Below, one piece after another: positions 30,477-41,909 of a DNA stretch of 64,000 nt. The stretch lies in contig JAHJHI010000046.1 of the NCBI GenBank assembly GCA_018824085.1, positions 62,001-126,000 on the forward strand, in the 5' to 3' direction. The notes beneath the pieces are model-generated. The model was not told the DNA's origin, made no database searches, and was given only the letters and a program-made list of their open reading frames with translations. Origin of the DNA: Gammaproteobacteria bacterium (GTDB taxonomy: Bacteria > Pseudomonadota > Gammaproteobacteria > Burkholderiales > Rhodocyclaceae). A program made the position numbers and the translations under genes. Numbering within the stretch: the stretch's first letter is position 1; each line of letters begins with the position of its first letter.

Positions 30477-30902
30477 ATGGAACGCAACACCCGCCAACGC
30501 ACGGCCATTCTCGGTTCGATCGAAAACGCCGGGCGCCCGCTGTCCCCGGCCGAAATCCACGACATCGCCCGCGCTGACGCGCCGGCGCTCGGACTGGCGA
30601 CGGTCTATCGCAACATCAAGATGCTGATCGAGGACGGACGCATCCGCGAGGTCAGCCTGCCCGGCGAGCCGCCGCGCTACGAAGTCGCCCACCTTGGCCA
30701 CCACCACCACTTCAAGTGCCGGCTATGCGGCCGGGTGTTCGACATCGCCGAATGCGGGACGGACTGGAACGCAATCGCCCCGGCCGGATTTGCCGTCGAG
30801 GCGCACGACGTCACGCTGTTCGGCGTATGCGCGCAATGCGCCGGCACGGCCGGCGCCGGCGTCGCCGCACCGCACCGGCACGACGACCACGGACATCACT
30901 GA
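30477..30902 (+). CDS. zur: Fur-family regulator, probably the zinc repressor Zur
   Basis: A 141-residue Fur-family protein. It has a winged helix (residues 1-75: RQRTAILGSIENAGRPLSPAEIHDIA, then LATVYRNIKMLIEDGRI) and a dimerisation domain with HHHHFKCRLCGRVFDIAEC and a second CAQC pair for structural zinc. A His-rich tail (APHRHDDHGHH) ends the protein. Its neighbours, a ZnuD-like receptor, a COG0523 GTPase and Zur-box-like sites, argue for Zur rather than Fur or PerR. The ATG at 30477 was chosen over the longer frame because the upstream part has no Fur sequence. Confidence 0.85.
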   Translation: MERNTRQRTAILGSIENAGRPLSPAEIHDIARADAPALGLATVYRNIKMLIEDGRIREVSLPGEPPRYEVAHLGHHHHFKCRLCGRVFDIAECGTDWNAIAPAGFAVEAHDVTLFGVCAQCAGTAGAGVAAPHRHDDHGHH

Positions 30903-30938
30903 GCGCGCGCCGGCACCGGGAGGTGACGCCCGCCCCGC

Positions 30939-31682
30939 TCAGCCCGCCTTCGCGCGGCGCATCGCCGCACCCAGCAAACTCAGTCCCGCAAGCATCAGCG
31001 CGTAGGCCTGCGGCTCCGGCACCGGCGCCATCAGCGCACCCACCGCGCTTTCAAACGCAGGCTCGCCCAGACCGTTGTTGAACGCGATGTGAAACGCATC
31101 CGACATCGCGTAGGGGCCGGGCAGCGAACCACCGTTGCCTCTTGACGTGAGTTGCAGCGTGATCAGATACGCCGACGCCACGTCGCGATCAGCGCCCGTG
31201 ATCGAAAAATCGAGATGGGAGTGGATGTCGCCCGCGCCGGACACCTGCGCGATCGCGCCCACCGGATCGGTCACACCGACCGACGAGAACGTGGTGTAGG
31301 TCCCGAGTACGTCAAGAATATTGACCGCCACGGCGGACGAAGCCACCACCCAGGAACTTCCGTTCCACGCCTGCAACGTACCGAGGCCCTGATACCAGAT
31401 CTGCGTACCGCCGGCCAGCGCGCCGTCCCCGGCGACGAAACCCGGATCGTCGGTTACGTAAAGGCCACCGCCGAAGTCCCGGAAGTCGGCTTCGAAAATC
31501 TTGCTGCCGTCGGCCGCGACCTGCGCCTGCCCGTGCGGATCGACATGCAGCACGTCCGAAACCGCCGCCACTTCGATATCTCCTGCGTGCTCCGCCGCGA
31601 ACGACGGTTGCGCCAGCACGCACAACAGCGCGATCGACATCCCGCGGACGGCGCGCAGCCGTCCTTTTGTATTCAACATCAT
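30939..31682 (-). CDS. Exported PEP-CTERM protein A, candidate zinc-limitation protein
   Basis: A 247-residue protein with a signal peptide cleaved after SFA and a C-terminal PEP-CTERM sorting tag: VPEP, a hydrophobic stretch, then RRAKAG. The middle has ADFRDFGGGLYVTDDPGF, the motif DIHSHLDFSI and the end segment AFHIAFNNGLGEPAF. These are shared with protein B at 33966-34805, so the two are paralogues. The HxHxD motif recalls the metal-linked surface-anchored repeat of actinobacterial zinc ABC loci; this is from memory and not tested. An ideal GGAGG lies 8 nt before the ATG at 31682. A Zur-box-like site is in its upstream region. Confidence 0.8.
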   Translation of the reverse strand: MMLNTKGRLRAVRGMSIALLCVLAQPSFAAEHAGDIEVAAVSDVLHVDPHGQAQVAADGSKIFEADFRDFGGGLYVTDDPGFVAGDGALAGGTQIWYQGLGTLQAWNGSSWVVASSAVAVNILDVLGTYTTFSSVGVTDPVGAIAQVSGAGDIHSHLDFSITGADRDVASAYLITLQLTSRGNGGSLPGPYAMSDAFHIAFNNGLGEPAFESAVGALMAPVPEPQAYALMLAGLSLLGAAMRRAKAG

Positions 31683-31778
31683 GTACAGCACCTCCATGAA
31701 GGATTGGAAAGGAACCGGAAACGACCGGGAGCACCCGCACACCGGATACGAAGCAACCGCCCGCTTGCCGCCTGTTAA

Positions 31779-31800
31779 CGATAATACGTTATTATTATCG
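31779..31800. promoter_or_regulatory. Zur-box-like palindrome 1 (protein A / TonB receptor)
   Basis: Arms CGATAATA and TATTATCG (8 bp, perfect) are separated by CGTTAT. The inner TAATACGTTATTATTA matches site 2 at 14 of 16 positions and resembles the published proteobacterial Zur consensus TAATG-TTATAA-CATTA. Confidence 0.7.
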
Positions 31801-31831
31801 AAACAACGCCGCGCTCACCTTTCCCGCCTTC

Positions 31832-33976
31832 ATGTCCGTCGCCAACCGTCGTCTCCGCCACCGCGCGCCGTCTCTGCCATCGTTCCGCCATACGCTGCTG
31901 GCGACGGCGCTGGGCGCCCTGCTTCACCAGGGTCCGGCCGGCGCGCAATCCGCCGAAACGCCGGTGGAGCTCGCACCGGTCGAAGTCGAAGCGTCGCGGC
32001 CCGACGAATCACCGGCCGAGCCGGGCCGGCCACGCACGGTGCTGCGGGACGACGCGCTGCGCGATCGCCGGGGCTCGACCCTCGGTGAAACCATCGGCGA
32101 CGAAGCCGGCGTGCACAACGCCAGCTTCGGCAGCGGCGTCGGCCTTCCGGTCATCCGTGGCCTGAGCGGCGCCCGCGTCAAGGTACTCAGCAACGGCGGC
32201 GGCACGCACGACGCGTCCGCCTTCAGCCCGGACCACGCGTCGACCGCCGACACGACGCTGGCCGACAGCGTGCGCATCCTGCGTGGCCCCGCGACGATCC
32301 GCTACGGCGGCGGCGCCATCGGCGGCGTGGTCGACGTCGACGACGGCCGCATCCCGACGCGCATTCCGGCACGCCCGTTCAGCGGCATGCTGGACACCCG
32401 CTACAACCGCAACGGTGCGGGTCGCGTGACTGCGTTGCGGCTCGACGGCGGCAACGCGCGGCTCGCCGTGCACGCCAGCGCGTCGAGCCACAGCCGCAGC
32501 GACAGTCACATTGCAGGCTGCGCCGTCGATGACGCCGCCGTGTTCGCGCAATTCGGGCAGATCAACGCGCGCAACAGCTGCGGTCGCCTCTACAACAGCG
32601 ACGCTCGCGGCGCGGCCGGCACGCTGGGCGGCAACCTGTTCCTCGACACGCTGGCCATCGGCGTCGCAATCAACGAAAGCTCAAGTCGCTACGGTATCCC
32701 GCCGGCGCCGGGCCACAGCCACGGCGGCGATGACCGCGTGCGCATCGACATGGACAATCGCCGGGTCGACACCCGCGTCGAATGGCTGGGCGAGGGCTGG
32801 CTGCAGGCCCTGCGCTACACCGGTGCGCACGTTGCATACCGGCACGACGAAATCGAACATGGCGCGGTCGCCACCACCTTCCGCAACGACGCCGTCGAAC
32901 AGCGACTCGAAGCGGAGCACCGCGTCGGCACGCACCTGAGCGGCACCGTCGGCGCACACGCGGTGCGGCGCGACTTTTCGGCACTCGGCGTCGAATCCTT
33001 CGTCCCGCTGACCGCGCTCGACAGCGCCGCGCTCTATGCGACACAGCGCATCGAGTGGTCCGCCTTCAGCCTTGAACTGGGGTGGCGCGCCGAGCGCACG
33101 CGCATGCGCGCGGCCGAACACCGGACCGTGCTCGGCGCCGACATCGTGTATCCGGCGCGCACACTGCACACCGGCAGCCGTTCGGCGGCGCTGTCCTGGC
33201 AGGCAACCCGCGCACTGAAGATCAGCCTGACCCGCTCGCATGCCGAACGTCCGCCCGAAATACACGAGCTGTATTCGACCGGCCCCCATCTGTCGACGCG
33301 CACCTTCGACATCGGAAAGCCCGATCTCGCGACCGAAACCATGCGTGGCACGGACTTCTCCGTCGAATACGAGAACGACGCCGTGCGCGCCACCGTCACG
33401 CAATTCAGCAACGACATCGAGGGCTACATCCACCAGCGCACCTTGCCGCTGTTTTTCGACACCGATTCACAACAGATCATCTTCGCCTGCGTGCGCCTGG
33501 AGGAGTGCCTGCCCATCGTGCAATACGCACAGGGTGACGCGCGCATGCATGGCTACGAAGCGGAGCTTGCGCTGAAGTGGCGCACGAGCCGCGCGGGCGA
33601 CGTCGAATGGAGCGTGTTCGCCGACGAAGTCAGCGGACGGCTGACGCAACTGCGCGAAGACATCCCGCGCCTGCCCGCCGCGCGCCTCGGCACGCAGTTG
33701 TCATTCAGCACGCCGGCGTGGAACGGGCGCGTGCGCGTGACGCGCCACGCCGACCAGAACCGCCCCGGCGCCAACGAAACACCGACCGCCGGCCACACGC
33801 GCGTGGATGCCAACCTGACGCACCGGCGCACGCTCGGCGCGACGCGCACGCTGACGCTGTATCTGCGTGCACGCAACCTGCTCGACGCTCACGCGCGCAA
33901 CGCGACCTCCTTCCTGCGCACCTTCTCGCCCGAGCCCGGACGCAGTGTGGAGGCTGGCGTGAGCCTCACGTTCTGA
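31832..33976 (+). CDS. znuD: ZnuD-like TonB-dependent outer-membrane receptor
   Basis: A 714-residue receptor with a signal peptide, a TonB-box-like VELAPVEVEA, a plug domain (about 78-180; VIRGLSGARVKVL, SVRILRGPATIRYGGGAIGG) and a 22-strand-type barrel ending in Phe. Features shared with ZnuD-type zinc receptors are the THDASAFSPDHAS plug segment, an external loop with Cys230 and Cys250, and the histidine cluster PGHSHGGDD (His295, His297). No good ribosome site is visible before the ATG. Zinc as substrate is inferred from Zur and the binding-site-like histidines. It overlaps the convergent protein B gene by 11 nt. Confidence 0.82.
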   Translation: MSVANRRLRHRAPSLPSFRHTLLATALGALLHQGPAGAQSAETPVELAPVEVEASRPDESPAEPGRPRTVLRDDALRDRRGSTLGETIGDEAGVHNASFGSGVGLPVIRGLSGARVKVLSNGGGTHDASAFSPDHASTADTTLADSVRILRGPATIRYGGGAIGGVVDVDDGRIPTRIPARPFSGMLDTRYNRNGAGRVTALRLDGGNARLAVHASASSHSRSDSHIAGCAVDDAAVFAQFGQINARNSCGRLYNSDARGAAGTLGGNLFLDTLAIGVAINESSSRYGIPPAPGHSHGGDDRVRIDMDNRRVDTRVEWLGEGWLQALRYTGAHVAYRHDEIEHGAVATTFRNDAVEQRLEAEHRVGTHLSGTVGAHAVRRDFSALGVESFVPLTALDSAALYATQRIEWSAFSLELGWRAERTRMRAAEHRTVLGADIVYPARTLHTGSRSAALSWQATRALKISLTRSHAERPPEIHELYSTGPHLSTRTFDIGKPDLATETMRGTDFSVEYENDAVRATVTQFSNDIEGYIHQRTLPLFFDTDSQQIIFACVRLEECLPIVQYAQGDARMHGYEAELALKWRTSRAGDVEWSVFADEVSGRLTQLREDIPRLPAARLGTQLSFSTPAWNGRVRVTRHADQNRPGANETPTAGHTRVDANLTHRRTLGATRTLTLYLRARNLLDAHARNATSFLRTFSPEPGRSVEAGVSLTF

Positions 33977-34805
33977 CGCGCCGCGCCAGCGCGCCCACCA
34001 TGAGCAGGCCCAGCGCCAGCATGCCGGCGGCCGGCGCCTCGGGCACCGGCGCCGTCACGCGCGACAGGAACGCAGCGTCGTACTGCGCCGGGGACAGGCC
34101 GTAGTTGAACAGCACGTGAAACGGCTCCGAGTCGACGTACACGCCGCGCCCGCCGATCGCCCGGTCATCCGTCAGCTGCAGCGTGAGCAGATAGGCGCCC
34201 GGCGTGCTGCCTTCGAAGAACCAGTCGAGGTGGGCATGAAAGCCGCCGTTGGCGTTCGCATCGTCGATGGTGGCCATCGCCGGGCCGCTCACGCCACTGC
34301 CCGAGAACAGTGTGCCGTTCTGGTAATAGGCGATGTCGGCCGCCGCATTTGGCGCAAGCAGCGGATTGATGAGGTACTGCAGATAGGCATTGGACACGGC
34401 CGGCGGCACCGCGCCATAGAGACGGATGCCGACGCCTGCCGCGGCGTCGCTCCATGTTCCGCTGAGCGGATTCCACTGCTGCAACGTGCCGAGCGCCCGG
34501 AAGCCGATGTAGTCCTTCGCGCCACCGGCGCCGGACAGCGTGCCGGCGAAGGCCTGGAAGCCCGGATCGTCAGTGGCTTTCGGCCCCCCTTCGAAGTCAC
34601 CGAAATCGGCCGGGAACACGGCGTATCCGGTCACCGCGTCGAGCGGCAGCGTACTGAACGGCAAGTCACCGTAGACGCCGGTGGTGATGCGGCTGCCGGC
34701 GACCGGCCCGTGGTCGAGGCCGATCTCGACATCGAAGTGGATGGCATGGGCCGCCGACGCATACAGCGACAGGGCGACGAAGCTTGCGCGGATGGTTGCA
34801 TTCAT
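33966..34805 (-). CDS. Exported PEP-CTERM-like protein B, paralogue of protein A
   Basis: A 279-residue protein with a signal peptide (MNATIRASFVALSLYASAAHA). It has the same order of landmarks as protein A: ADFGDFEGGPKATDDPGF, FHAHLDWFFEGSTPGAYLLTL and EPFHVLFNYGLSPAQYD. The C-terminal tag reads VPEAPAAGML followed by a hydrophobic helix and RRVRT, so the canonical PEP is PEA here. The ATG at 34805 has GGAG 7 nt upstream. Two Zur-box-like sites lie in its divergent promoter. The function is unknown; metal binding or surface presentation is inferred from context. Confidence 0.78.
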   Translation of the reverse strand: MNATIRASFVALSLYASAAHAIHFDVEIGLDHGPVAGSRITTGVYGDLPFSTLPLDAVTGYAVFPADFGDFEGGPKATDDPGFQAFAGTLSGAGGAKDYIGFRALGTLQQWNPLSGTWSDAAAGVGIRLYGAVPPAVSNAYLQYLINPLLAPNAAADIAYYQNGTLFSGSGVSGPAMATIDDANANGGFHAHLDWFFEGSTPGAYLLTLQLTDDRAIGGRGVYVDSEPFHVLFNYGLSPAQYDAAFLSRVTAPVPEAPAAGMLALGLLMVGALARRVRT

Positions 34806-34831
34806 GAAGATCTCCGTTGGGGTGGCTTTGC

Positions 34832-34847
34832 TAATGATAACGCATTA
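34832..34847. promoter_or_regulatory. Zur-box-like palindrome 2 (protein B / protein C)
   Basis: On the minus strand it reads TAATGCGTTATCATTA, differing from site 1 by a compensated A/T to G/C pair. It lies between the divergent PEP-CTERM genes, 27 nt from the start codon of protein B. Confidence 0.7.
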
Positions 34848-34877
34848 CCGTTTACATCAAAACAGAACACCTCTATA

Positions 34878-34895
34878 TTGATACTTCGTTATCAA
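34878..34895. promoter_or_regulatory. Zur-box-like palindrome 3 (protein C operon)
   Basis: TTGATA-CTTCGT-TATCAA has 6-bp perfect arms around a 6-nt centre. It matches the site 1/2 core at 12 of 16 positions and shares CGTTAT. It lies 35 nt before the ATG of protein C. Confidence 0.6.
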
Positions 34896-34929
34896 CAACA
34901 GGCTCACGCCTCCACCGGAGTGATTCACC

Positions 34930-35790
34930 ATGATCCATCCCCGCCCCCTCCTGCTCGCGCTGCTGCTGGGCACCACCGCCGGTTCCGCCCTTGCATCGGA
35001 GCCGATCCGAGGCGCTGAAGGCATCGGCTTCTATATCGGCATCGATTCGCTCGAAACACTGTCGAGCGGCACCTACGCCGGTCTCGACAATCCGAACTAC
35101 GGTCGCCTCACGCTGCTGTTCGACCACGGCAACCACTTTCACAGCATCGGTGCGTACAGCCTTGTCGGCACCGCTGACGCACCGGTCGTCAACGGTACGA
35201 ACGCGAACAACCGCATCCCGGAGCTTTACGCGCGCATCGACCCGCTGCCGGGCGCCCTCACGCTGACGCCGGGCAGCGGTGACTTCGCCGGCCAGCTCGT
35301 CAGCGGCGTGCTGGACTCGTCCGCCGCGCATCACGAATACAGCTACCTCGGCATGTCCTCCATCCAGACGCTCGCCGACGCCGCACCCGGCAGTGCGCAA
35401 GCCGTGCTGTACGGAAGCAGCAGCGGTCGCTGGAGCAGCGCGCTCGACGGCGTGCAGGTCGCCCTCAAGCTCGAATACATCACCCCCGGCCTGAAGGTGG
35501 CGGCCAACGGTGACGCCGACCTGTTCGACGAAAGCAATCTGTTCCTGCTGGGCGCCGGCAACACCTTCGACTTCCTGCCCACCTTCTACACCGATGCCGG
35601 CAGCGCGCCCGGCACCTACAGCGTGCAGTTTTCGCTGGTGAATCTCGGCAGCAACCTGTCCGTGCGGGACGGCGGCACCTTCCACTACGACTTCGCCGTC
35701 GCGGCGCCGGTCCCCGAGCCCGGCAGCTGGGCCATGCTGCTCGGCGGCCTGCTCATGGTCGGACTCACCGCGTCGCGTCGCGCACGCTGA
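34930..35790 (+). CDS. Exported PEP-CTERM protein C (all3515-like, Zur-repressed family candidate)
   Basis: A 286-residue protein with a signal peptide cleaved after SALA and a canonical PEP-CTERM tag (VPEPGSWAMLLGGLLMVGL, then RRAR). The body (FYIGIDSLETLSSGTYAGL, NPNYGRLTLLFDHGNHFHSIGAYS, NNRIPELYARIDP) is unlike A and B. From memory it resembles the Zur-repressed all3515 PEP-CTERM family named after an Anabaena gene. The HGNHFHS cluster could bind metal. It is first gene of a likely operon with the DUF1826 and COG0523 genes (gaps of 39 and 19 nt). Confidence 0.8.
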   Translation: MIHPRPLLLALLLGTTAGSALASEPIRGAEGIGFYIGIDSLETLSSGTYAGLDNPNYGRLTLLFDHGNHFHSIGAYSLVGTADAPVVNGTNANNRIPELYARIDPLPGALTLTPGSGDFAGQLVSGVLDSSAAHHEYSYLGMSSIQTLADAAPGSAQAVLYGSSSGRWSSALDGVQVALKLEYITPGLKVAANGDADLFDESNLFLLGAGNTFDFLPTFYTDAGSAPGTYSVQFSLVNLGSNLSVRDGGTFHYDFAVAAPVPEPGSWAMLLGGLLMVGLTASRRAR

Positions 35791-35829
35791 CGAGGAGCGC
35801 GGGCGACTGAGGCCGGTCGTCCGCATCAC

Positions 35830-36471
35830 ATGAATTCACGCCTTGACCCTGCCAGCCATGTGTCGTCGCTGCCGCTGGCCGGCAGCACCGGCGACGTCGC
35901 CGAACTGGCCCGCATCTTCCAGCCCGACTGCCACCTGATGTGCCTGCGCCGGCAGGTACCGCCCGACCTGGCCGGCTTCCTGCATGCCGCTTTCGCGAGC
36001 GGCGCCCTGCGCAGCGGAAGGCGGGCGGTGATCGACGCCGGTGCCGCGCTGCCGCCGGACATGCTGCCCGATCTGCCCGGCCGCGATGCCGTGCACGAAG
36101 ACGTGAGCCGGCTGTCCGGACTGCTCGCCGACCTGACCGGTTGCCCGCGCGCCGGCGTTCGCATCGAAGTCCTGGATCGCGCCATGTGCCCGCGCTGGCA
36201 CGTCGACCAGGTCGGACTGCGGCTGCTCACGACATGGATCGGTCCCGCCACCGAGTGGCTGGCCGAACACTGCGCAGACCGCAGGCTGCTCGGCAGCGAC
36301 GCAGTGATGGCCGATGCAAGCGGCATCGGACGCGCCGGCACAGGCGATGTCGTGCTGATGAAGGGCGAGCGCTGGCCCGGCAACGCCGGGCGCGGCGTCA
36401 TCCACCGCTCGCCTGCCCTTTCAACCCCGCACCGCGTGCGCATCGTGGCCGCCATCGATGCCGTGTGGTGA
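35830..36471 (+). CDS. DUF1826 protein with HxD...H...R pattern
   Basis: A 213-residue cytoplasmic protein of the uncharacterised DUF1826 family. It has Cys120-Pro-Arg-Trp-His124-Val-Asp126, then His192 in [10 protein letters not shown] and Arg202/Arg204 ten to twelve residues on. That order and spacing is the iron/2-oxoglutarate dioxygenase signature (HxD, distal His, Arg). It lies between a PEP-CTERM gene and a zinc GTPase under likely Zur control; COG0523 genes of the zinc group often have this neighbour. Enzyme activity is inference from residues only. Confidence 0.7.
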
Positions 36472-36490
36472 ACACCGACGGATTCCCCTC

Positions 36491-37744
36491 ATGACCCACC
36501 GCCTCCCCGTCACCGTGCTGTCCGGCTTTCTCGGCGCCGGCAAGACGACACTGCTGAACCACATCCTGTCCAATGCCGAAGGCCGTCGCGTGGCGGTCAT
36601 CGTCAACGACATGTCGGAGGTCAACATCGACGCGCAACGGGTCGCCGACCAGGGCGCACTCACCCGCACCGACGCTCGCATGGTCGAAATGTCCAATGGC
36701 TGCATCTGCTGCACCTTGCGGGAAGACCTTCTGATCGAGGTGTCGCGCCTCGCGCGCGAAGGCCGCTTCGACTATCTCGTCATCGAATCGACCGGCATAT
36801 CGGAGCCGCTGCCGGTGGCCGAAACCTTCACCTTCGAGGACGAAGCCGGCGCCAGCCTGTCAGCCGTGGCCCGGCTCGACACCATGGTGACCGTCGTCGA
36901 CGCCTTCAATTTCCTGCGCGACTACTCGGGCACCGACGCGCTCGCCGCGCGTGGCGAATCGATGGGCGAAGAAGACAGCCGCACCGTGGTGGACCTGCTG
37001 GTCGACCAGATCGAATTCGCCGACGTCATCGTGCTCAACAAGTGTGATCTCGCGACCGCCCCGGAACTCGCCCGTCTGCAGGCCATCCTGCGCGCACTGA
37101 ACCCGCGCGCCGACATCGTGCAGGCAAGCGAAGGACGCGTGCCGCTCGCGCGCATCCTCGACACCGGGCGCTTCGACTTCGACGCGGCGGCCGAAGCACC
37201 GGGCTGGCTGCAGGAAATGCGCGGCACACACGTTCCCGAATCGGACACCTACGGCATCCGCAGCTTTTCGTGGAGCGCCCGTCGCCCGCTGCACCCCCAG
37301 CGCTTTCGCAACCTGATCGACCTGGAATGGCCGGGCGTCATCCGCAGCAAGGGCTATTTCTGGCTGGCCAGCCGCATGGACGTCGCCGGCGAATGGGCAC
37401 AGGCCGGCGCGATCTGCCGCAGTCAGGCCGCAGGGCTGTGGTGGGCTGCGGTCGACCGCGCGCACTGGCCGACCGACCCTGACGCCATGAAGCAGATCCA
37501 CGCCCGCTGGCAGGCGCCGTTCGGCGACCGCCGTCAGGAACTCGTGTTCATCGGCATGGACATGGACGAAGCATGGCTGCGCAGCCAGCTCGGCGCCTGT
37601 CTGCTCGATGACGACGAGATGGCGCTCGGCGAGGCGGCGTGGTCGCGCTTCGCCGACCCGTTCGACGTCTGGACGAAAGTGTCCGACGAGGCAGACGAAC
37701 ACGAGGAAGAAGGCGCAGGCGAGGAAGCGCCCGAAGCCGTCTGA
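36491..37744 (+). CDS. zigA: COG0523 zinc GTPase, ZigA-type metallochaperone
   Basis: A 417-residue G3E GTPase. It has Walker [10 protein letters not shown] (12-20), the metal-binding CxCC (Cys71, Cys73, Cys74 in [11 protein letters not shown]), ESTGISEP, and NKCD for guanine. The C-terminal CobW domain is at about 255-400, and the protein ends in an acidic tail. ZigA/ZNG1-type members deliver zinc to apo-enzymes in zinc shortage. It is the last gene of the protein C operon and convergent with the two-component regulator. Confidence 0.88.
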
Positions 37745-37752
37745 ACGACGCG

Positions 37753-38445
37753 TCAGCGGCGCGGCGTGTCGGTCGTCTCCAGACCGATGCGCCGCTCGGT
37801 CACCCAGGGCACCAGCCCCACTTCCGACGCCAGCTTCACCAGTTCGATGTCCGAATTCACGTCCAGCTTGCGGCGCGCCGTACTGAGCTTGTTGGCCACC
37901 GTCTTCGGACTGAGGTTGAGCTGTTCCGCGATGCGCTCAATCGAATGGCCGGACACCAGCAGGCGGCACATTTCGAATTCACGCGGCGTCAGATAACCGA
38001 ACAGCTTGGACTCCGGCAGGTAATGCGAGAACGCGACGCTCTCGGCCACTTGCCGGCTCAGTACGCGTTTGCCGCGCGCGATCGACTGGACGCCGTCGAC
38101 CAGCGCATCGGCCGGACTGTCCTTCGTCAGCACGCCCATCGCGCCGGCGTCCAGCGCCTGCTGCACCACGGTCGGGTGCGAACACATGGTGAACATCAGC
38201 ACGCGCGCCTGTTCGTCAAACGCCACGATGCGGCGCGTCGCCTCGATGCCGCTCGAACCCGGCAGCATGATGTCCATCACCACGACATCCGGCCGGTGCT
38301 TGCGGTATGCGGCATACGCGTCATCCGCACTCCCCGCCTCGGCGACCACGGCGAGCGCTTCGTTCATTTCGAGCAGCGTGCGGTATCCGGTGCGTACCAC
38401 CTCGTGATCGTCGACGAGAAGGATGCGTGTCTGGCGTACGTTCAT
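37753..38445 (-). CDS. LuxR-type response regulator beside the mxa operon
   Basis: A 230-residue NarL/FixJ-type regulator. The receiver has the acidic pocket DDHE and phospho-acceptor Asp in VVVMDIMLPG. The C-terminal helix-turn-helix is LTPREFEMCRLLVSGHSIERIAEQLNLSPKTVANKL. It overlaps the sensor kinase by 4 nt. Divergent position to mxaF matches MxaX of Paracoccus and recalls MxaB of Methylobacterium, regulators needed for methanol dehydrogenase expression, so control of mxaF is likely. Confidence 0.88.
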   Translation of the reverse strand: MNVRQTRILLVDDHEVVRTGYRTLLEMNEALAVVAEAGSADDAYAAYRKHRPDVVVMDIMLPGSSGIEATRRIVAFDEQARVLMFTMCSHPTVVQQALDAGAMGVLTKDSPADALVDGVQSIARGKRVLSRQVAESVAFSHYLPESKLFGYLTPREFEMCRLLVSGHSIERIAEQLNLSPKTVANKLSTARRKLDVNSDIELVKLASEVGLVPWVTERRIGLETTDTPRR

Positions 38446-39794
38446 GCGGATATCTCCTGTTCATTGCGTGCAAAAGGCAGCCGTACCGAAACCCGCCAGC
38501 CGCCGCCCGGCGCCGGGCCCGCCTCGCAGCTGCCGCCGAGTGCCAGCGCGCGCTCGCGCATGCCGAGCATGCCCAGTCCGCTACCGCCGGCCGGCGGACC
38601 GTGGGCGCTGCCGTTGTCCCAGATGTCGAGCTTCAGCGCGTGTTCGTCGCTGGCATCGTCGATCGACACATGCACCAGCAGGCGCGAACAGTCCGAGTGC
38701 CGGAACGCATTGGTCACCGCTTCCTGCACGATGCGGTAGGCGCTCGCCTCGATCGCCGGACCGGCGTCGGCCGATTCGCCCTCCAGCTCCAGCACCAGTT
38801 CAAGCGGGCGCGGCGCCTGATCACCGCGCTGTTCGATCAGCTGACGCAGCGCGTTGTACAGGCCGAGCGCATCGATCTCGGCCGGATGCAGCGACTCCAG
38901 CTGCATCCGCACCCGGCCGAGCAATTGCGCCAGATGCTCGCCCAGCGCCAGCGCGCTCGGACGAAAGCGGGCAAGCGCGGGCTCGCTGCGGCAGGCCATC
39001 GCCAGCACGGCGACGTGCGGCTGCATGGCGACCATATAGGTGCTCATTTCATCGTGCAGGTCGCGCGCGATGGCGCGCCGCGTCTGCTCTTCCATCACCA
39101 TGATCTTGCGCAGCAGCGACGAGCGCTCGCGGCTCACATCGGCCAGCGAGCTGGCCATGCGGTTGAACGACGCGGACAGTTCGGCCAGTTCGGGCAGACG
39201 GAACGGCGGCAGACGCGCGTCGAGATTGCCGGCCTCGATCTGGCGCAGCGCCGCGCGCAGCGCGTGCGCCGGCTCCAGCGCCCGTCCGAGCGCCCAGTAC
39301 AGCACCGCGCCGAGCGACACGCAGTAGGCCACCGTCAGCAGGCTCAGGCGCTTGAAGCCCTCCCACTTCTCGCGCATCTCGTCCGACGGCATCGGCGACA
39401 CGCGATAGAACCCCTCGATGCGGCCGTTCATGCGCCAGGGCTTCATGCGCACCGTTCCGTTGTCGTGCGTCACGGCCGCATCCGGCGGCGCCGCGCCTCC
39501 CGCATCCGACGACGCCAGCACGACGCCGTGCAGGTCGACCACGTCGATGCGCACATGCCGGATGTCCTTCATGTGCTGAACGCGCGCCAGCAGCGAATCC
39601 AGCATGCGCGACCCGGCCGCGTCCTCGGGCCGGTAGATCTCGTCCGGCAGCAACAGCAGCGCGAGCCGCGTGCCGGACTCGATCTCGTCGACCGAATCGA
39701 TACGCCAGGCCTTGTAGTGCAGGACGCCATGCGTCAGCAGCAGCAGGCACATGAGCGCGAGGACGATCAACAGCAGTCGGTTTTTCAGGTTCAT
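38442..39794 (-). CDS. MoxY/MxaY-like sensor histidine kinase
   Basis: A 450-residue membrane kinase. It has TM1 (7-22), a periplasmic region of about 125 residues like the LapD/MoxY N-terminal domain, TM2 (150-170), HAMP (about 170-225), and a HisKA_3 phospho-acceptor in ARDLHDEMSTY (His247). The HATPase has NAFRHSDCS and GLGMLGMRERA. The ATG at 39794 starts the first TM segment. With the overlapping response regulator it forms a methanol- or C1-responsive pair by position; the sensed signal is unknown. Confidence 0.87.
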   Translation of the reverse strand: MNLKNRLLLIVLALMCLLLLTHGVLHYKAWRIDSVDEIESGTRLALLLLPDEIYRPEDAAGSRMLDSLLARVQHMKDIRHVRIDVVDLHGVVLASSDAGGAAPPDAAVTHDNGTVRMKPWRMNGRIEGFYRVSPMPSDEMREKWEGFKRLSLLTVAYCVSLGAVLYWALGRALEPAHALRAALRQIEAGNLDARLPPFRLPELAELSASFNRMASSLADVSRERSSLLRKIMVMEEQTRRAIARDLHDEMSTYMVAMQPHVAVLAMACRSEPALARFRPSALALGEHLAQLLGRVRMQLESLHPAEIDALGLYNALRQLIEQRGDQAPRPLELVLELEGESADAGPAIEASAYRIVQEAVTNAFRHSDCSRLLVHVSIDDASDEHALKLDIWDNGSAHGPPAGGSGLGMLGMRERALALGGSCEAGPAPGGGWRVSVRLPFARNEQEISA

Positions 39795-39863
39795 GCCGGA
39801 CAGAGGGGCAATACGGAGACGGCCGGCATGCGGCACCGGTGTGTCGATGGTATCGCCACAGCC

Positions 39864-39895
39864 GAGGGACAAAATCCCCTCGTTGCAATGAGGGG
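39864..39895. promoter_or_regulatory. Triple alternating repeat upstream of mxaF
   Basis: GAGGG (39864), CCCTC (39877) and GAGGG (39890) alternate in orientation with starts exactly 13 nt apart. The right pair extends to 6-bp arms CCCCTC and GAGGGG around GTTGCAAT. It lies about 40-70 nt upstream of the likely mxaF start of transcription, a usual activator position. Confidence 0.55.
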
Positions 39896-39924: not shown

Positions 39925-39930
39925 TATAGT
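39925..39930 (+). promoter_or_regulatory. Likely -10 element of mxaF
   Basis: TATAGT is present without a recognisable -35 at 16-18 nt upstream, which suggests activator dependence. Start of transcription near 39937 gives a leader of about 146 nt. Confidence 0.45.
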
Positions 39931-40082
39931 TGCCGGACCGAACGGACTGGAGGCCGGGCGAGCAGCACATGCCTCCGGAAGCCGACGGCGACGGCCCGCG
40001 TGATCACTCCCGTGCTCACGCGGGCTGCCAGAAAGCGAGGCGCGTATCCCCGCGCGCAACATCCATGGAGGAGAGAACCGAT

Positions 40083-41909
40083 ATGTCCCGTAAGAATACG
40101 ACCCGGCAGGCGAACCTGAAGCCGCGCCGGCTGAGCAGCCTCGTTGCTGCCGCAGCCGCCGGCTTCGCACTCGCGTCGGTGGCTGGCGTCGCACACGCCA
40201 ACGCCGAACTCGTGAAGCTGTCGAAGGACGACCGTCAGTGGGTCATGCAGGGCAAGGACTACGACCACAGCCACTACAGCGGCCTGAAGCAGATCAACCG
40301 CAGCAACGTGAAGAACCTGAAGGCGGCATGGACCTTCTCGACCGGCGTGCTGCACGGCCACGAAGGCGGTCCGCTGGTGGTGGACGGCATCATGTACGTC
40401 CACACGCCCTTCCCCAACACGACCTACGCGATCGATCTCGACAACCCGAACAAGATCCTGTGGGAACACAAGCCGAAGCAGGACGCATCGGTCCGCGCAG
40501 TGGCCTGCTGCGACGTCGTGAATCGCGGTCTCGCTTACGGCGACGGCAAGATCTTCAAAACCCAGCTCGACGGCCACGTCGTCGCGCTCGACGCGAAGAC
40601 CGGCAAGGAACTGTGGAAGATGGAGAACTCCGACCCGAAGGTCGGCTCCACGCTGACGCAGGCACCGATGGTGGTTGAAGACATGGTCATCGTCGGCTCG
40701 AGCGGCGCCGAACTGGGCGTGCGCGGCTACGTCACGGCCTACCGCATGAAGGACGGCAAGCAGGTCTGGCGCGCGTTCGCGACCGGCCCGGACGAGGACA
40801 TCCTGCTGGCGGACGACTTCAACATGGCCAACCCGCACTACGGTCAGAAGGGCCTCGGCACCTCGACCTGGGAAGGCGACGCATGGAAGATCGGCGGCGG
40901 CACCAACTGGGGCTGGTACGCCTACGACCCGGCACTGAAGATGATGTACTACGGCTCGGGCAACCCGGCGCCGTGGAACGAAACGATGCGCCCGGGCGAC
41001 AACAAGTGGACCATGTCCATCTGGGGTCGCGACGTGAAGACCGGCAAGGCCAAGTTCGCCTTCCAGAAGACGCCCCATGACGAATGGGACTACGCCGGCG
41101 TGAACTGGATCGGCCTGTCGGAACAGACGGTCGACGGCAAGAAGCAGAAGCTGCTGACCCACCCGGACCGCAACGGCATCGTCTACACGCTCAACCGCGA
41201 GAACGGCAACCTGGTGCGGGCCGACAAGATCGACCCGACGGTGAACGTGTTCAAGGGCTACGACATGAAGAAGGGCGTGCCCATCCGCGATCCGGAATAC
41301 TCGACCCGCATGGACCACCTCGCCAAGGGCATCTGCCCGTCCGCGATGGGTTACCACAACCAGGGCCACGACTCGTACGACAAGAAGCGCGAGCTCATGA
41401 TGCTGGGCACCAACATGATCTGCATGGACTGGGAGCCGTTCATGCTGCCCTACCGCGCCGGTCAGTTCTTCGTGGGTGCGACGCTGAACATGTACGCCAC
41501 GCCCGGCAACAACGGCAACATGGGGCAGGTCAAGGCGTACGACGTGAAGACCTCGAAGTTCAAGTGGGTCAAGGACGAGAAGTTCTCGGTCTGGGGCGGC
41601 ACGACCAGCACCGCGGGCGACCTCGTTTTCTACGGCACGCTCGACGGTCTGATCAAGGCGGTGGATGCCGACAACGGCAAGACGCTGTGGGAATTCAAGC
41701 TTCCCTCGGGCGTCATCGGCCACCCGGTCACCTATGAGCACAAGGGCAAGCAATACGTGGCCATCTACTACGGCGTGGGCGGCTGGCCCGGCGTCGGCCT
41801 CGTGTTCGACCTGACCGATCCGACCGCAGGTCTCGGTGCAGTGGGCGCCTTCAAGGAGCTCCAGCAATACACCAAGATGGGCGGCGGCGTGATGGTGTTC
41901 TCGCTGTAA
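40083..41909 (+). CDS. mxaF: Methanol dehydrogenase large subunit (calcium type)
   Basis: A 608-residue PQQ enzyme that oxidises methanol to formaldehyde in the periplasm. The signal peptide ends near AHA (residue 39). Eight W-motif propeller repeats follow. Key residues are visible: adjacent Cys142-Cys143, calcium ligands Glu210 and Asn294, and the catalytic base Asp336 in [10 protein letters not shown]. Ala338 marks the Ca-type; lanthanide XoxF enzymes have Asp there. The presence of mxaI and the mxaRSACKL assembly genes agrees. GGAGGAGA precedes the ATG at 40083. Electrons go to MxaG. Confidence 0.98.

What the first reader, a model, noticed from the sequence alone, without database searches (positions are those of the whole stretch)
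30477..37744. Zur-centred zinc regulon combining PEP-CTERM surface proteins, a ZnuD-like receptor, a DUF1826 protein and a COG0523 GTPase
Seven genes with a common theme lie together: a Fur-family regulator with zinc-type cysteines and a His tail, a TonB receptor with histidine loops, three exported proteins, a DUF1826 protein and a ZigA-type GTPase with CxCC. Each divergent promoter holds a matching palindrome. Zur, ZnuD and COG0523 are established zinc-starvation components. The use of three exosortase-sorted proteins as part of such a set is much less described and may be a surface zinc-capture system.
Basis: partly seen in the sequence, partly recalled or inferred. Interest (0 to 1): 0.78.

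Follow-up and report, generated by a model that had tools for sequence, protein, structure and literature searches.

The report
Zur-linked surface zinc-scavenging gene cluster
A bacterial gene cluster that looks like a zinc-starvation kit: besides parts already known from other bacteria, it carries two related exported proteins that, in most loci examined, sit beside a zinc-type receptor and may feed zinc to it.

Summary
The seven genes and the palindromes are real; most of the set is already known. Protein C is ZepA/All3515 (NF040463, 269.5 bits, cut-off 75), a published Zur-regulated PEP-CTERM zinc exoprotein, reported near COG0523, TonB receptors, other PEP-CTERM proteins and a Fur-family gene. 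ZigA passes its cut-off; DUF1826 is reported Zur-linked. The regulator's nearest solved relatives are Zur. The receptor keeps all four ligands of a ZnuD zinc site. An even-spaced palindrome, GATAAT-N8-ATTATC, recurs in related promoters above chance, though in only 5 of 19 loci outside the genus. No ZnuA was found in the genome. New here: A and B are paralogues without a named family or detectable kinship to ZepA once sorting tails are cut. They form two separate clades, keep an invariant HxH, and A and/or B lie with a ZnuD-type receptor in 31 of 35 loci; once, A shares one open frame with it. Best reading: a Zur-repressed surface zinc-acquisition locus with A and B as receptor partners. Zinc binding by A/B and zinc response are untested. 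Most novel reading: a two-protein extracellular zinc relay for a ZnuD-type receptor.

The parts
30477..30902 (+). Fur-family regulator, Zur-like (141 aa, two CxxC pairs, HHHH before the first, His-rich tail)
   Evidence: PF01475 74.9 bits; best solved matches 3mwm (named 'putative metal uptake regulation protein', S. coelicolor Zur as I recall it) 72.5 bits and M. tuberculosis FurB 'zinc uptake regulation protein' 2o03 58.5, ahead of Fur 51.6 and PerR 51.0; E. coli-type Zur model NF008646 only 26.8 bits, cut-off 167
30939..31682 (-). Protein B: exported protein, mature start near AEHAGDIE (by eye), invariant H32/D35 and H154-x-H156, PEP-CTERM tail
   Evidence: PF07589 28.1 bits over 20.7; alignment of 25 B proteins
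31780..31799 (.). Palindrome GATAATACGTTATTATTATC between B and the receptor (putative Zur box)
   Evidence: only perfect GATAAT-N8-ATTATC in the genome; counterparts in relatives
31832..33976 (+). ZnuD-type TonB-dependent receptor; zinc-site residues D134, H135, E340, H486 kept
   Evidence: PF00593, PF07715; ZnuD 4rdr the only solved hit at 1e-10, 214 bits; residues by alignment; NF038289 295 bits, below its 950 cut-off
33966..34805 (-). Protein A: paralogue of B, invariant D25 and H190-x-H192, tail VPEA-hydrophobic-RR
   Evidence: 36% identity to B over 227 columns, E 2e-27; profile match 100%; alignment of 23 A proteins
34830..34849 (.). Palindrome GCTAATGATAACGCATTACC between A and C (putative Zur box 1)
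34851..34879 (+). Promoter-like TTTACA-17-TATATT facing C, lying between the two palindromes
   Evidence: 1 found; shuffles mean 0.2
34878..34895 (.). Palindrome TTGATACTTCGTTATCAA (putative Zur box 2, weaker)
   Evidence: sequence; 3 mismatches to the seed pattern
34930..35790 (+). Protein C = ZepA/All3515 family zinc exoprotein; H66-GN-H69-F-H71 motif; PEP-CTERM tail
   Evidence: NF040463 269.5 bits, cut-off 75; H66, H69, F70, H71 invariant in 16 of 16 aligned homologues
35830..36471 (+). DUF1826 protein, 39 nt after zepA
   Evidence: PF08856 171.4 bits
36491..37744 (+). COG0523 GTPase ZigA (GCICC motif), 19 nt after DUF1826
   Evidence: NF038288 667.3 bits, cut-off 600

Best explanation
A Zur-repressed zinc-acquisition locus. 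When zinc is plentiful the Zur-like regulator binds the palindromes and shuts off two divergent promoter pairs: B with the receptor, and A with zepA-DUF1826-zigA. When zinc is scarce, ZepA, A and B are exported by Sec; ZepA and B (and A by analogy) lose their sorting tails to an exosortase and end at or beyond the outer membrane. They collect zinc there, and A and B present it to, or gate, the ZnuD-type receptor. The receptor moves zinc into the periplasm, where, with no ZnuA found in this genome, a ZIP transporter probably carries it inward, and ZigA distributes it in the cell. Shown by sequence: gene content, families, receptor zinc-site residues, paralogy of A and B, their co-occurrence with the receptor, shared palindromes in part of the loci, no ZnuA match, presence of ZIP and exosortase genes. 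Inferred: zinc binding by A and B, contact with the receptor, repression by this regulator, the ZIP step.
For: ZepA and ZigA over curated cut-offs, DUF1826 over Pfam's; regulator nearest to solved Zur; receptor nearest to solved ZnuD, with the D/H/E/H zinc site complete in 29 of 31 receptors aligned, window included; the exceptions are L026 (cut before the last residue) and L140 (second residue Leu). The same seven genes in the same-genus genomes of L007 and L008 and in L009, L010 and L011 (L020 is the L008 genome again). A, B and a ZnuD-like receptor together in 23 of 24 loci of one A/B scan (in L026 A and receptor are in pieces); a receptor in 8 of 11 further loci. A and B are reciprocal clades at 100/97. 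A and the receptor in one 2065-codon frame in L029. Palindromes enriched, flanking a promoter-like site of zepA. No ZnuA in the own genome while 11 of 14 controls ring; ZIP present; two exosortases. L027, L030, L031, L032 have a neighbour closest to the E. coli-type Zur model (87-108 bits, below its cut-off of 167); for L031 solved E. coli-type Zur 4mtd is second at 65.3 bits after a Fur-family entry at 86.9.
Against: No expression, binding or phenotype data. Regulator and receptor miss the NCBIfam Zur and ZnuD cut-offs. The palindrome is found at 10/12 or better in only 5 of 19 loci outside Methyloversatilis, so in the others another motif or no such control must act; spacing 5 was a runner-up with 8 sites. 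No promoter-like site was found between B and the receptor. The pattern also catches a site conserved in four congeners, in three of them right before a gene that reads like an iron ABC ATPase, so it does not by itself tell Zur from Fur. The site before the ZIP gene has a non-palindromic right arm and may be a promoter -10. The regulators beside L016 and L017 are not clearly Zur. In A and B the HxH could be structural. Seven of 20 genomes tested have ZnuA as well, so the module does not simply replace it.
Confidence: 0.72

Rival explanations
1. The locus is the published ZepA system and nothing more: A and B are just further PEP-CTERM surface or matrix proteins co-expressed with it, with no part in zinc capture.
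For: The 2024 paper already lists other PEP-CTERM proteins, TonB receptors and COG0523 near zepA (PMC10957091). A and B have no detectable kinship to ZepA with tails removed and no family of known function over cut-off.
Against: A and B stay with the receptor even where ZepA is not in the fetched stretch: ZepA was found in 14 of 24 loci, the A-B-receptor trio in 23. A and the receptor share one frame in L029.
Confidence: 0.17
2. The regulator is a Fur- or PerR-type protein and the locus answers iron, haem or peroxide; the receptor takes up a haem-like or metallophore ligand.
For: NCBIfam's top (sub-cut-off) regulator matches are PerR and Fur models; the receptor also matches a haem-receptor model weakly (88.7 bits, cut-off 316.85); the box resembles a Fur box with one base more (inference), and the pattern also hits an iron-type promoter.
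Against: Solved Zur proteins outrank Fur and PerR; a better Fur candidate exists elsewhere in the genome (157 bits); spacing 7, which I recall for the Fur box, gives 1 site against 18 for spacing 8; zinc ligands of ZnuD are kept; ZepA and ZigA are zinc proteins.
Confidence: 0.07
3. A and B stay in the periplasm or on the inner membrane and act as zinc-binding proteins in place of ZnuA, handing zinc to the ZIP transporter.
For: 13 of 20 genomes tested lack a ZnuA match, including the own one; the genome has ZIP genes.
Against: G070, a congener in which ZepA was not found (A and B not tested there), also lacks ZnuA, and 7 of 20 have ZnuA. PEP-CTERM tails are thought to direct proteins outward (PMC10957091). 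A sits in one frame with an outer-membrane receptor in L029.
Confidence: 0.08

Closest known systems
ZepA (All3515) system of Anabaena and relatives (PMC10957091)
   Same: C is a ZepA by curated model and by the H-x2-H-F-H motif; Fur-family gene, COG0523, TonB receptor and other PEP-CTERM proteins nearby; palindromes upstream
   Different: Here two extra paralogous exoproteins (A, B) form a unit with the receptor that also exists where ZepA was not found in the fetched stretch; A/B are not homologous to ZepA by profile once tails are cut
ZnuD of Neisseria (4rdr; PMC4557270, one passage seen)
   Same: TonB-dependent receptor, four zinc ligands kept, His-rich loop
   Different: Partnered with A and B; below the ZnuD model's cut-off (295 of 950 bits). 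In Neisseria no such exoproteins are known to me (recalled)
COG0523-DUF1826 Zur-regulated clusters (PMC2770081, PMC5786701; passages seen)
   Same: COG0523 and DUF1826 in Zur-regulated gene clusters with an outer-membrane protein (figure legend); DUF1826 gene in a Zur RNA-seq set of Francisella
   Different: The passages I saw do not mention A/B-type proteins
Azurin and the copper receptor OprC (named in PMC10957091; listing)
   Same: An exported metal-binding protein reported to interact with a TonB receptor
   Different: Copper, cupredoxin fold, single protein, no exosortase tail (recalled); resemblance of working only

Membership tests
ZepA/All3515 family | NF040463 over curated cut-off | tested here: met
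   269.5 bits, cut-off 75
ZepA/All3515 family | H-X2-9-H-F/Y-H zinc motif | tested here: met
   H66-GN-H69-F-H71; the three His and the Phe invariant in 16 of 16; motif as defined in PMC10957091
ZepA/All3515 family | signal peptide and PEP-CTERM tail | tested here: met
   PF07589 23.2 over 20.7; signal peptide by eye only
ZepA/All3515 family (asked of A and B) | A and B homologous to ZepA | tested here: not met
   profile match 96-98% with the tail falls to below 4% without it
Zur | closest to solved Zur structures | tested here: met
   3mwm 72.5, 2o03 58.5, next Fur 51.6
Zur | NF008646 (E. coli-type Zur) over cut-off | tested here: not met
   26.8 bits, cut-off 167; that this model covers another Zur lineage is my reading
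Zur | zinc-dependent DNA binding | not testable with these tools
   needs a binding assay
ZnuD | four-residue zinc site (printed D90/H100/E340/H499; the alignment puts an Asp directly before H100) | tested here: met
   window D134/H135/E340/H486
ZnuD | NF038289 over cut-off | tested here: not met
   295.1 bits, cut-off 950; so called ZnuD-type, not ZnuD
ZigA | NF038288 over cut-off | tested here: met
   667.3 bits, cut-off 600
DUF1826 | PF08856 over cut-off | tested here: met
   171.4 bits, cut-off 22
PEP-CTERM proteins | PF07589 over cut-off in A, B and C | tested here: inconclusive
   B 28.1 and C 23.2 met; A no match, tail VPEA
choice-of-anchor M / TIGR03769 surface proteins (asked of A and B) | NF038134 or TIGR03769 over cut-off | tested here: not met
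   window A 18.1 of 55 and 18.8 of 30.9 bits; matched at E 0.01 in 1 of 23 A and 0 of 25 B

The most novel reading that the evidence does not exclude
A and B are an undescribed pair of exported zinc-handling proteins, duplicated long ago and kept together in beta- and gammaproteobacteria, that work as a two-part extracellular relay or lid for a ZnuD-type receptor: a protein counterpart of a zincophore and its receptor, to which some lineages add ZepA.
Probability: 0.4. Interest if true: 0.75.

Novelty: new variant of a known kind. Interest (0 to 1): 0.56.

Why it matters
How extracellular zinc is handed to outer-membrane receptors is little known. The ZepA authors suggested hand-over to an outer-membrane TonB receptor and pointed to two Anabaena candidates, untested. 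Here a ZnuD-type receptor with its zinc ligands kept is tied to two other dedicated exoproteins by neighbourhood, by co-occurrence in 31 of 35 loci and by one shared open frame. That makes the hand-over idea testable with three purified proteins in a genus that I recall as non-pathogenic methylotrophs, and would give the exosortase system a clear nutritional use.

Tried and rejected
A/B as relatives of ZepA: hhalign gave 96-98%, but this rested on the sorting tail; rejected.

A/B as choice-of-anchor M or TIGR03769 proteins (recalled to lie near actinobacterial metal ABC transporters): sub-cut-off in one of 23 A proteins, none of 25 B. The genome search with NF038134 rang in 0 of 398 and in none of 14 controls, so it says nothing. 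A paper search gave nothing useful (listing). Left as a lead only.

ZIP promoter box as an independent proof of the Zur box: it is the second-best site of the genome, and congener G070 has one at 1 mismatch just before its ZIP match. But in four of five Methyloversatilis genomes compared the right arm reads ATTTTC or GTTTTC (11, 11, 10, 10 of 12), and in the fifth (L060, 8 of 12) the TTTTC comes one base earlier, which fits a -10 element as well. Kept as suggestive only.

Absence of ZnuA as a correlate of the module: 13 of 20 lack a match, but so does a congener in which ZepA was not found (A/B not tested in it). Rejected as a correlate.

Profile search of solved structures found nothing for A and one chance-level hit for B.

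L007 and L008 were left out of the promoter counts; L020 has the contig length of L008 and is that genome again. In one search, four of 15 fetched stretches were duplicates and not counted. The regulator alignment has 10 rows: L018 was dropped because the stretch I named held a stop (its gene is also cut by the contig start), and L011, L016, L017, L027, L030, L031 and L032 were not included. The receptor alignment leaves out L133, whose receptor is cut, and L007/L008. Spacing 5 was the runner-up with 8 sites.
Full report
What is there. The seven genes are at the stated coordinates. The Fur-family gene (30477-30902) has no palindrome of this kind in its own upstream region (best 7 of 12). B (30939-31682, minus) and the receptor (31832-33976, plus) diverge, as do A (33966-34805, minus) and C (34930-35790, plus). 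DUF1826 and the COG0523 gene follow C at 39 and 19 nt, so C-DUF1826-zigA reads as one operon (inference from spacing).

Families. C passes the curated cut-off of NF040463, 'all3515 family Zur-repressed PEP-CTERM protein', 269.5 against 75 bits; the GTPase passes NF038288 ZigA, 667 against 600. DUF1826 passes PF08856. The receptor scores 295 bits to the ZnuD model (cut-off 950), and ZnuD 4rdr is its only solved relative at 1e-10. The zinc site of ZnuD is printed as D90/H100/E340/H499 in the one passage I saw of PMC4557270; the alignment puts an aspartate directly before H100, so I read D90 as D99. The window keeps all four (D134, H135, E340, H486), and so do 29 of 31 receptors aligned, window included; L026 is cut off before the last one and L140 has Leu at the second. 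The regulator is nearest to solved 3mwm (72.5 bits; S. coelicolor Zur as I recall, listed as a metal uptake regulator) and M. tuberculosis FurB, a zinc uptake regulator (58.5), then Fur (51.6) and PerR (51.0). The genome has two other FUR-family genes: one far stronger match (157 bits, the likely Fur, inference) and one without CxxC pairs beside an ispH-like gene (named from sequence by eye).

What is in print. PMC10957091 (abstract, passages, and sections 10, 12, 13, 17 and 18 read) shows that All3515, renamed ZepA, is a Zur target and a zinc exoprotein in Anabaena. It reports that zepA in Proteobacteria, Nitrospirota and the PVC group is near a Fur-family gene and that zepA contexts include COG0523, TonB receptors and other PEP-CTERM proteins, with a 16-bp palindrome upstream in Proteobacteria. 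It proposes hand-over to an outer-membrane receptor. DUF1826 is Zur-linked in Francisella (one passage of PMC5786701) and is drawn in Zur-regulated clusters with an outer-membrane protein (figure legend in PMC2770081). [quoted passage not shown] Its figures are not held, so A/B homologues may be drawn there unnamed.

A and B. They are paralogues (36% identity over 227 columns, E 2e-27; profile probability 100%). No named family covers their body over cut-off: sorting-tail models match, besides sub-cut-off hints in A. Their apparent kinship to ZepA (96-98%) vanishes when tails are cut. In 23 A proteins D25, H190 and H192 are invariant; in 25 B proteins H32, D35, H154 and H156 are. An ML tree puts all A and all B rows on opposite sides of one branch at 100/97: I infer an old duplication with both copies kept.

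Neighbourhood. A scan of genome contigs with the A/B profile matched 70 stretches, of which 25 encode relatives, in 24 loci; the receptor played no part in the choice. A, B and a ZnuD-like receptor are together in 23 (in L026 with A and receptor in pieces); the exception, L032, ends at the contig edge. ZepA lies in 14 of the 24 stretches and a Fur-family gene in 17. A second scan with B found 14 of 399 genomes of the order, the own one included. Of 15 stretches fetched, four duplicated earlier loci; matches in G162 that are L016 and L029 again were not fetched. Of the 11 new stretches 8 hold a receptor; the misses are L137 (A with ZepA; the same genome has B with a receptor in L136), L141 (a lone extra B in the genome of L016 and L029) and L142 (contig end). 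Total 31 of 35, not all from different genomes. In L029, A, an autotransporter part and the receptor form one frame of 2065 codons without a stop; one genome only, a metagenome assembly. ZepA was found in 3 of 150 family genomes sampled, all of the own genus; one of four own-genus genomes, G070, had no match.

Control sites. In module promoters of the window and the 24 loci GATAAT-N8-ATTATC at 10 of 12 or better gives 18 distinct sites in 102 regions; 20 dinucleotide shuffles give a mean of 1.25 and a maximum of 4. Eleven of the 18 are outside Methyloversatilis, in 5 of 19 such loci; in the other 14 none was found. In 429 kb of whole loci there are 20 such places; by my reading of the list 16 lie in module promoters, one more just before B of L031, and three elsewhere. 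Spacing 7 gives 1 site, spacing 5 gives 8. In the window a promoter-like TTTACA-17-TATATT for zepA lies between two palindromes; none was found between B and the receptor. Genome-wide, the only other site with at most one mismatch lies 18 nt before a ZIP gene; its right arm is not palindromic in relatives, so I do not rely on it. The pattern is not proof against Fur: a site conserved in four congeners lies, in the three where I could read it, right before an iron-type ABC ATPase gene, named by eye.

Genome setting. ZnuA has no match here, and none in 13 of 20 genomes tested, the own one included; ZIP is present in 11 of 11 other genomes tested and here; two exosortases are present. In L027, L030, L031 and L032 the Fur-family neighbour of the module is closest to the E. 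coli-type Zur model (87-108 bits, below its cut-off of 167; L031), so two Zur-like lineages seem to accompany the module; those of L016 and L017 are not clearly Zur.

Mechanism. The most likely reading is a surface zinc-acquisition set under Zur, in which ZepA, A and B act outside and the receptor brings zinc in. The A-B-receptor tie is the new element; that A and B bind zinc is inference from HxH, neighbours and shared palindromes.

Verdict.

Noticed in passing
L029:9941-16138: A-type domain, PATR repeats, autotransporter barrel and a ZnuD-type receptor in one stop-free frame; by eye the segment before the plug is repeated about three times.
   Followed up: partly
L007:10142-11338, and the zigA places of L010, L011, L012: In these Methyloversatilis loci the COG0523 gene is only 48-49% identical to the window's ZigA, against 81-82% in L008 and L009, as if replaced by another COG0523.
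   Followed up: no
L017, L021, L024 (A genes); L027:9929-11299: A shows no PEP-CTERM-like tail by eye in the first three (proline-rich end); in L027 a dockerin-like domain follows (PF00404 23.4 bits, cut-off 22.9).
   Followed up: no
L026 (Methylobacillus glycogenes): A and the receptor are in pieces, as if the module is decaying or the assembly has errors.
   Followed up: no
L085, L086, L096, L097 near base 1501: A site like TATAATTGAGAGCGATTATC is conserved in four congeners; in three (L085, L096, L097) a gene reading like an iron ABC transporter ATPase starts right behind it.
   Followed up: partly
window 37753-38445 and 38442-39872, minus strand: By eye a LuxR-type response regulator and a sensor kinase, next to a PQQ-type dehydrogenase gene (about 39930-41909, plus). 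Not tested against families.
   Followed up: no
L024:2609-4762 and L017:4649-6892: A large lipoprotein-like frame (717 and 747 aa, by eye) lies just before the receptor in both loci.
   Followed up: no
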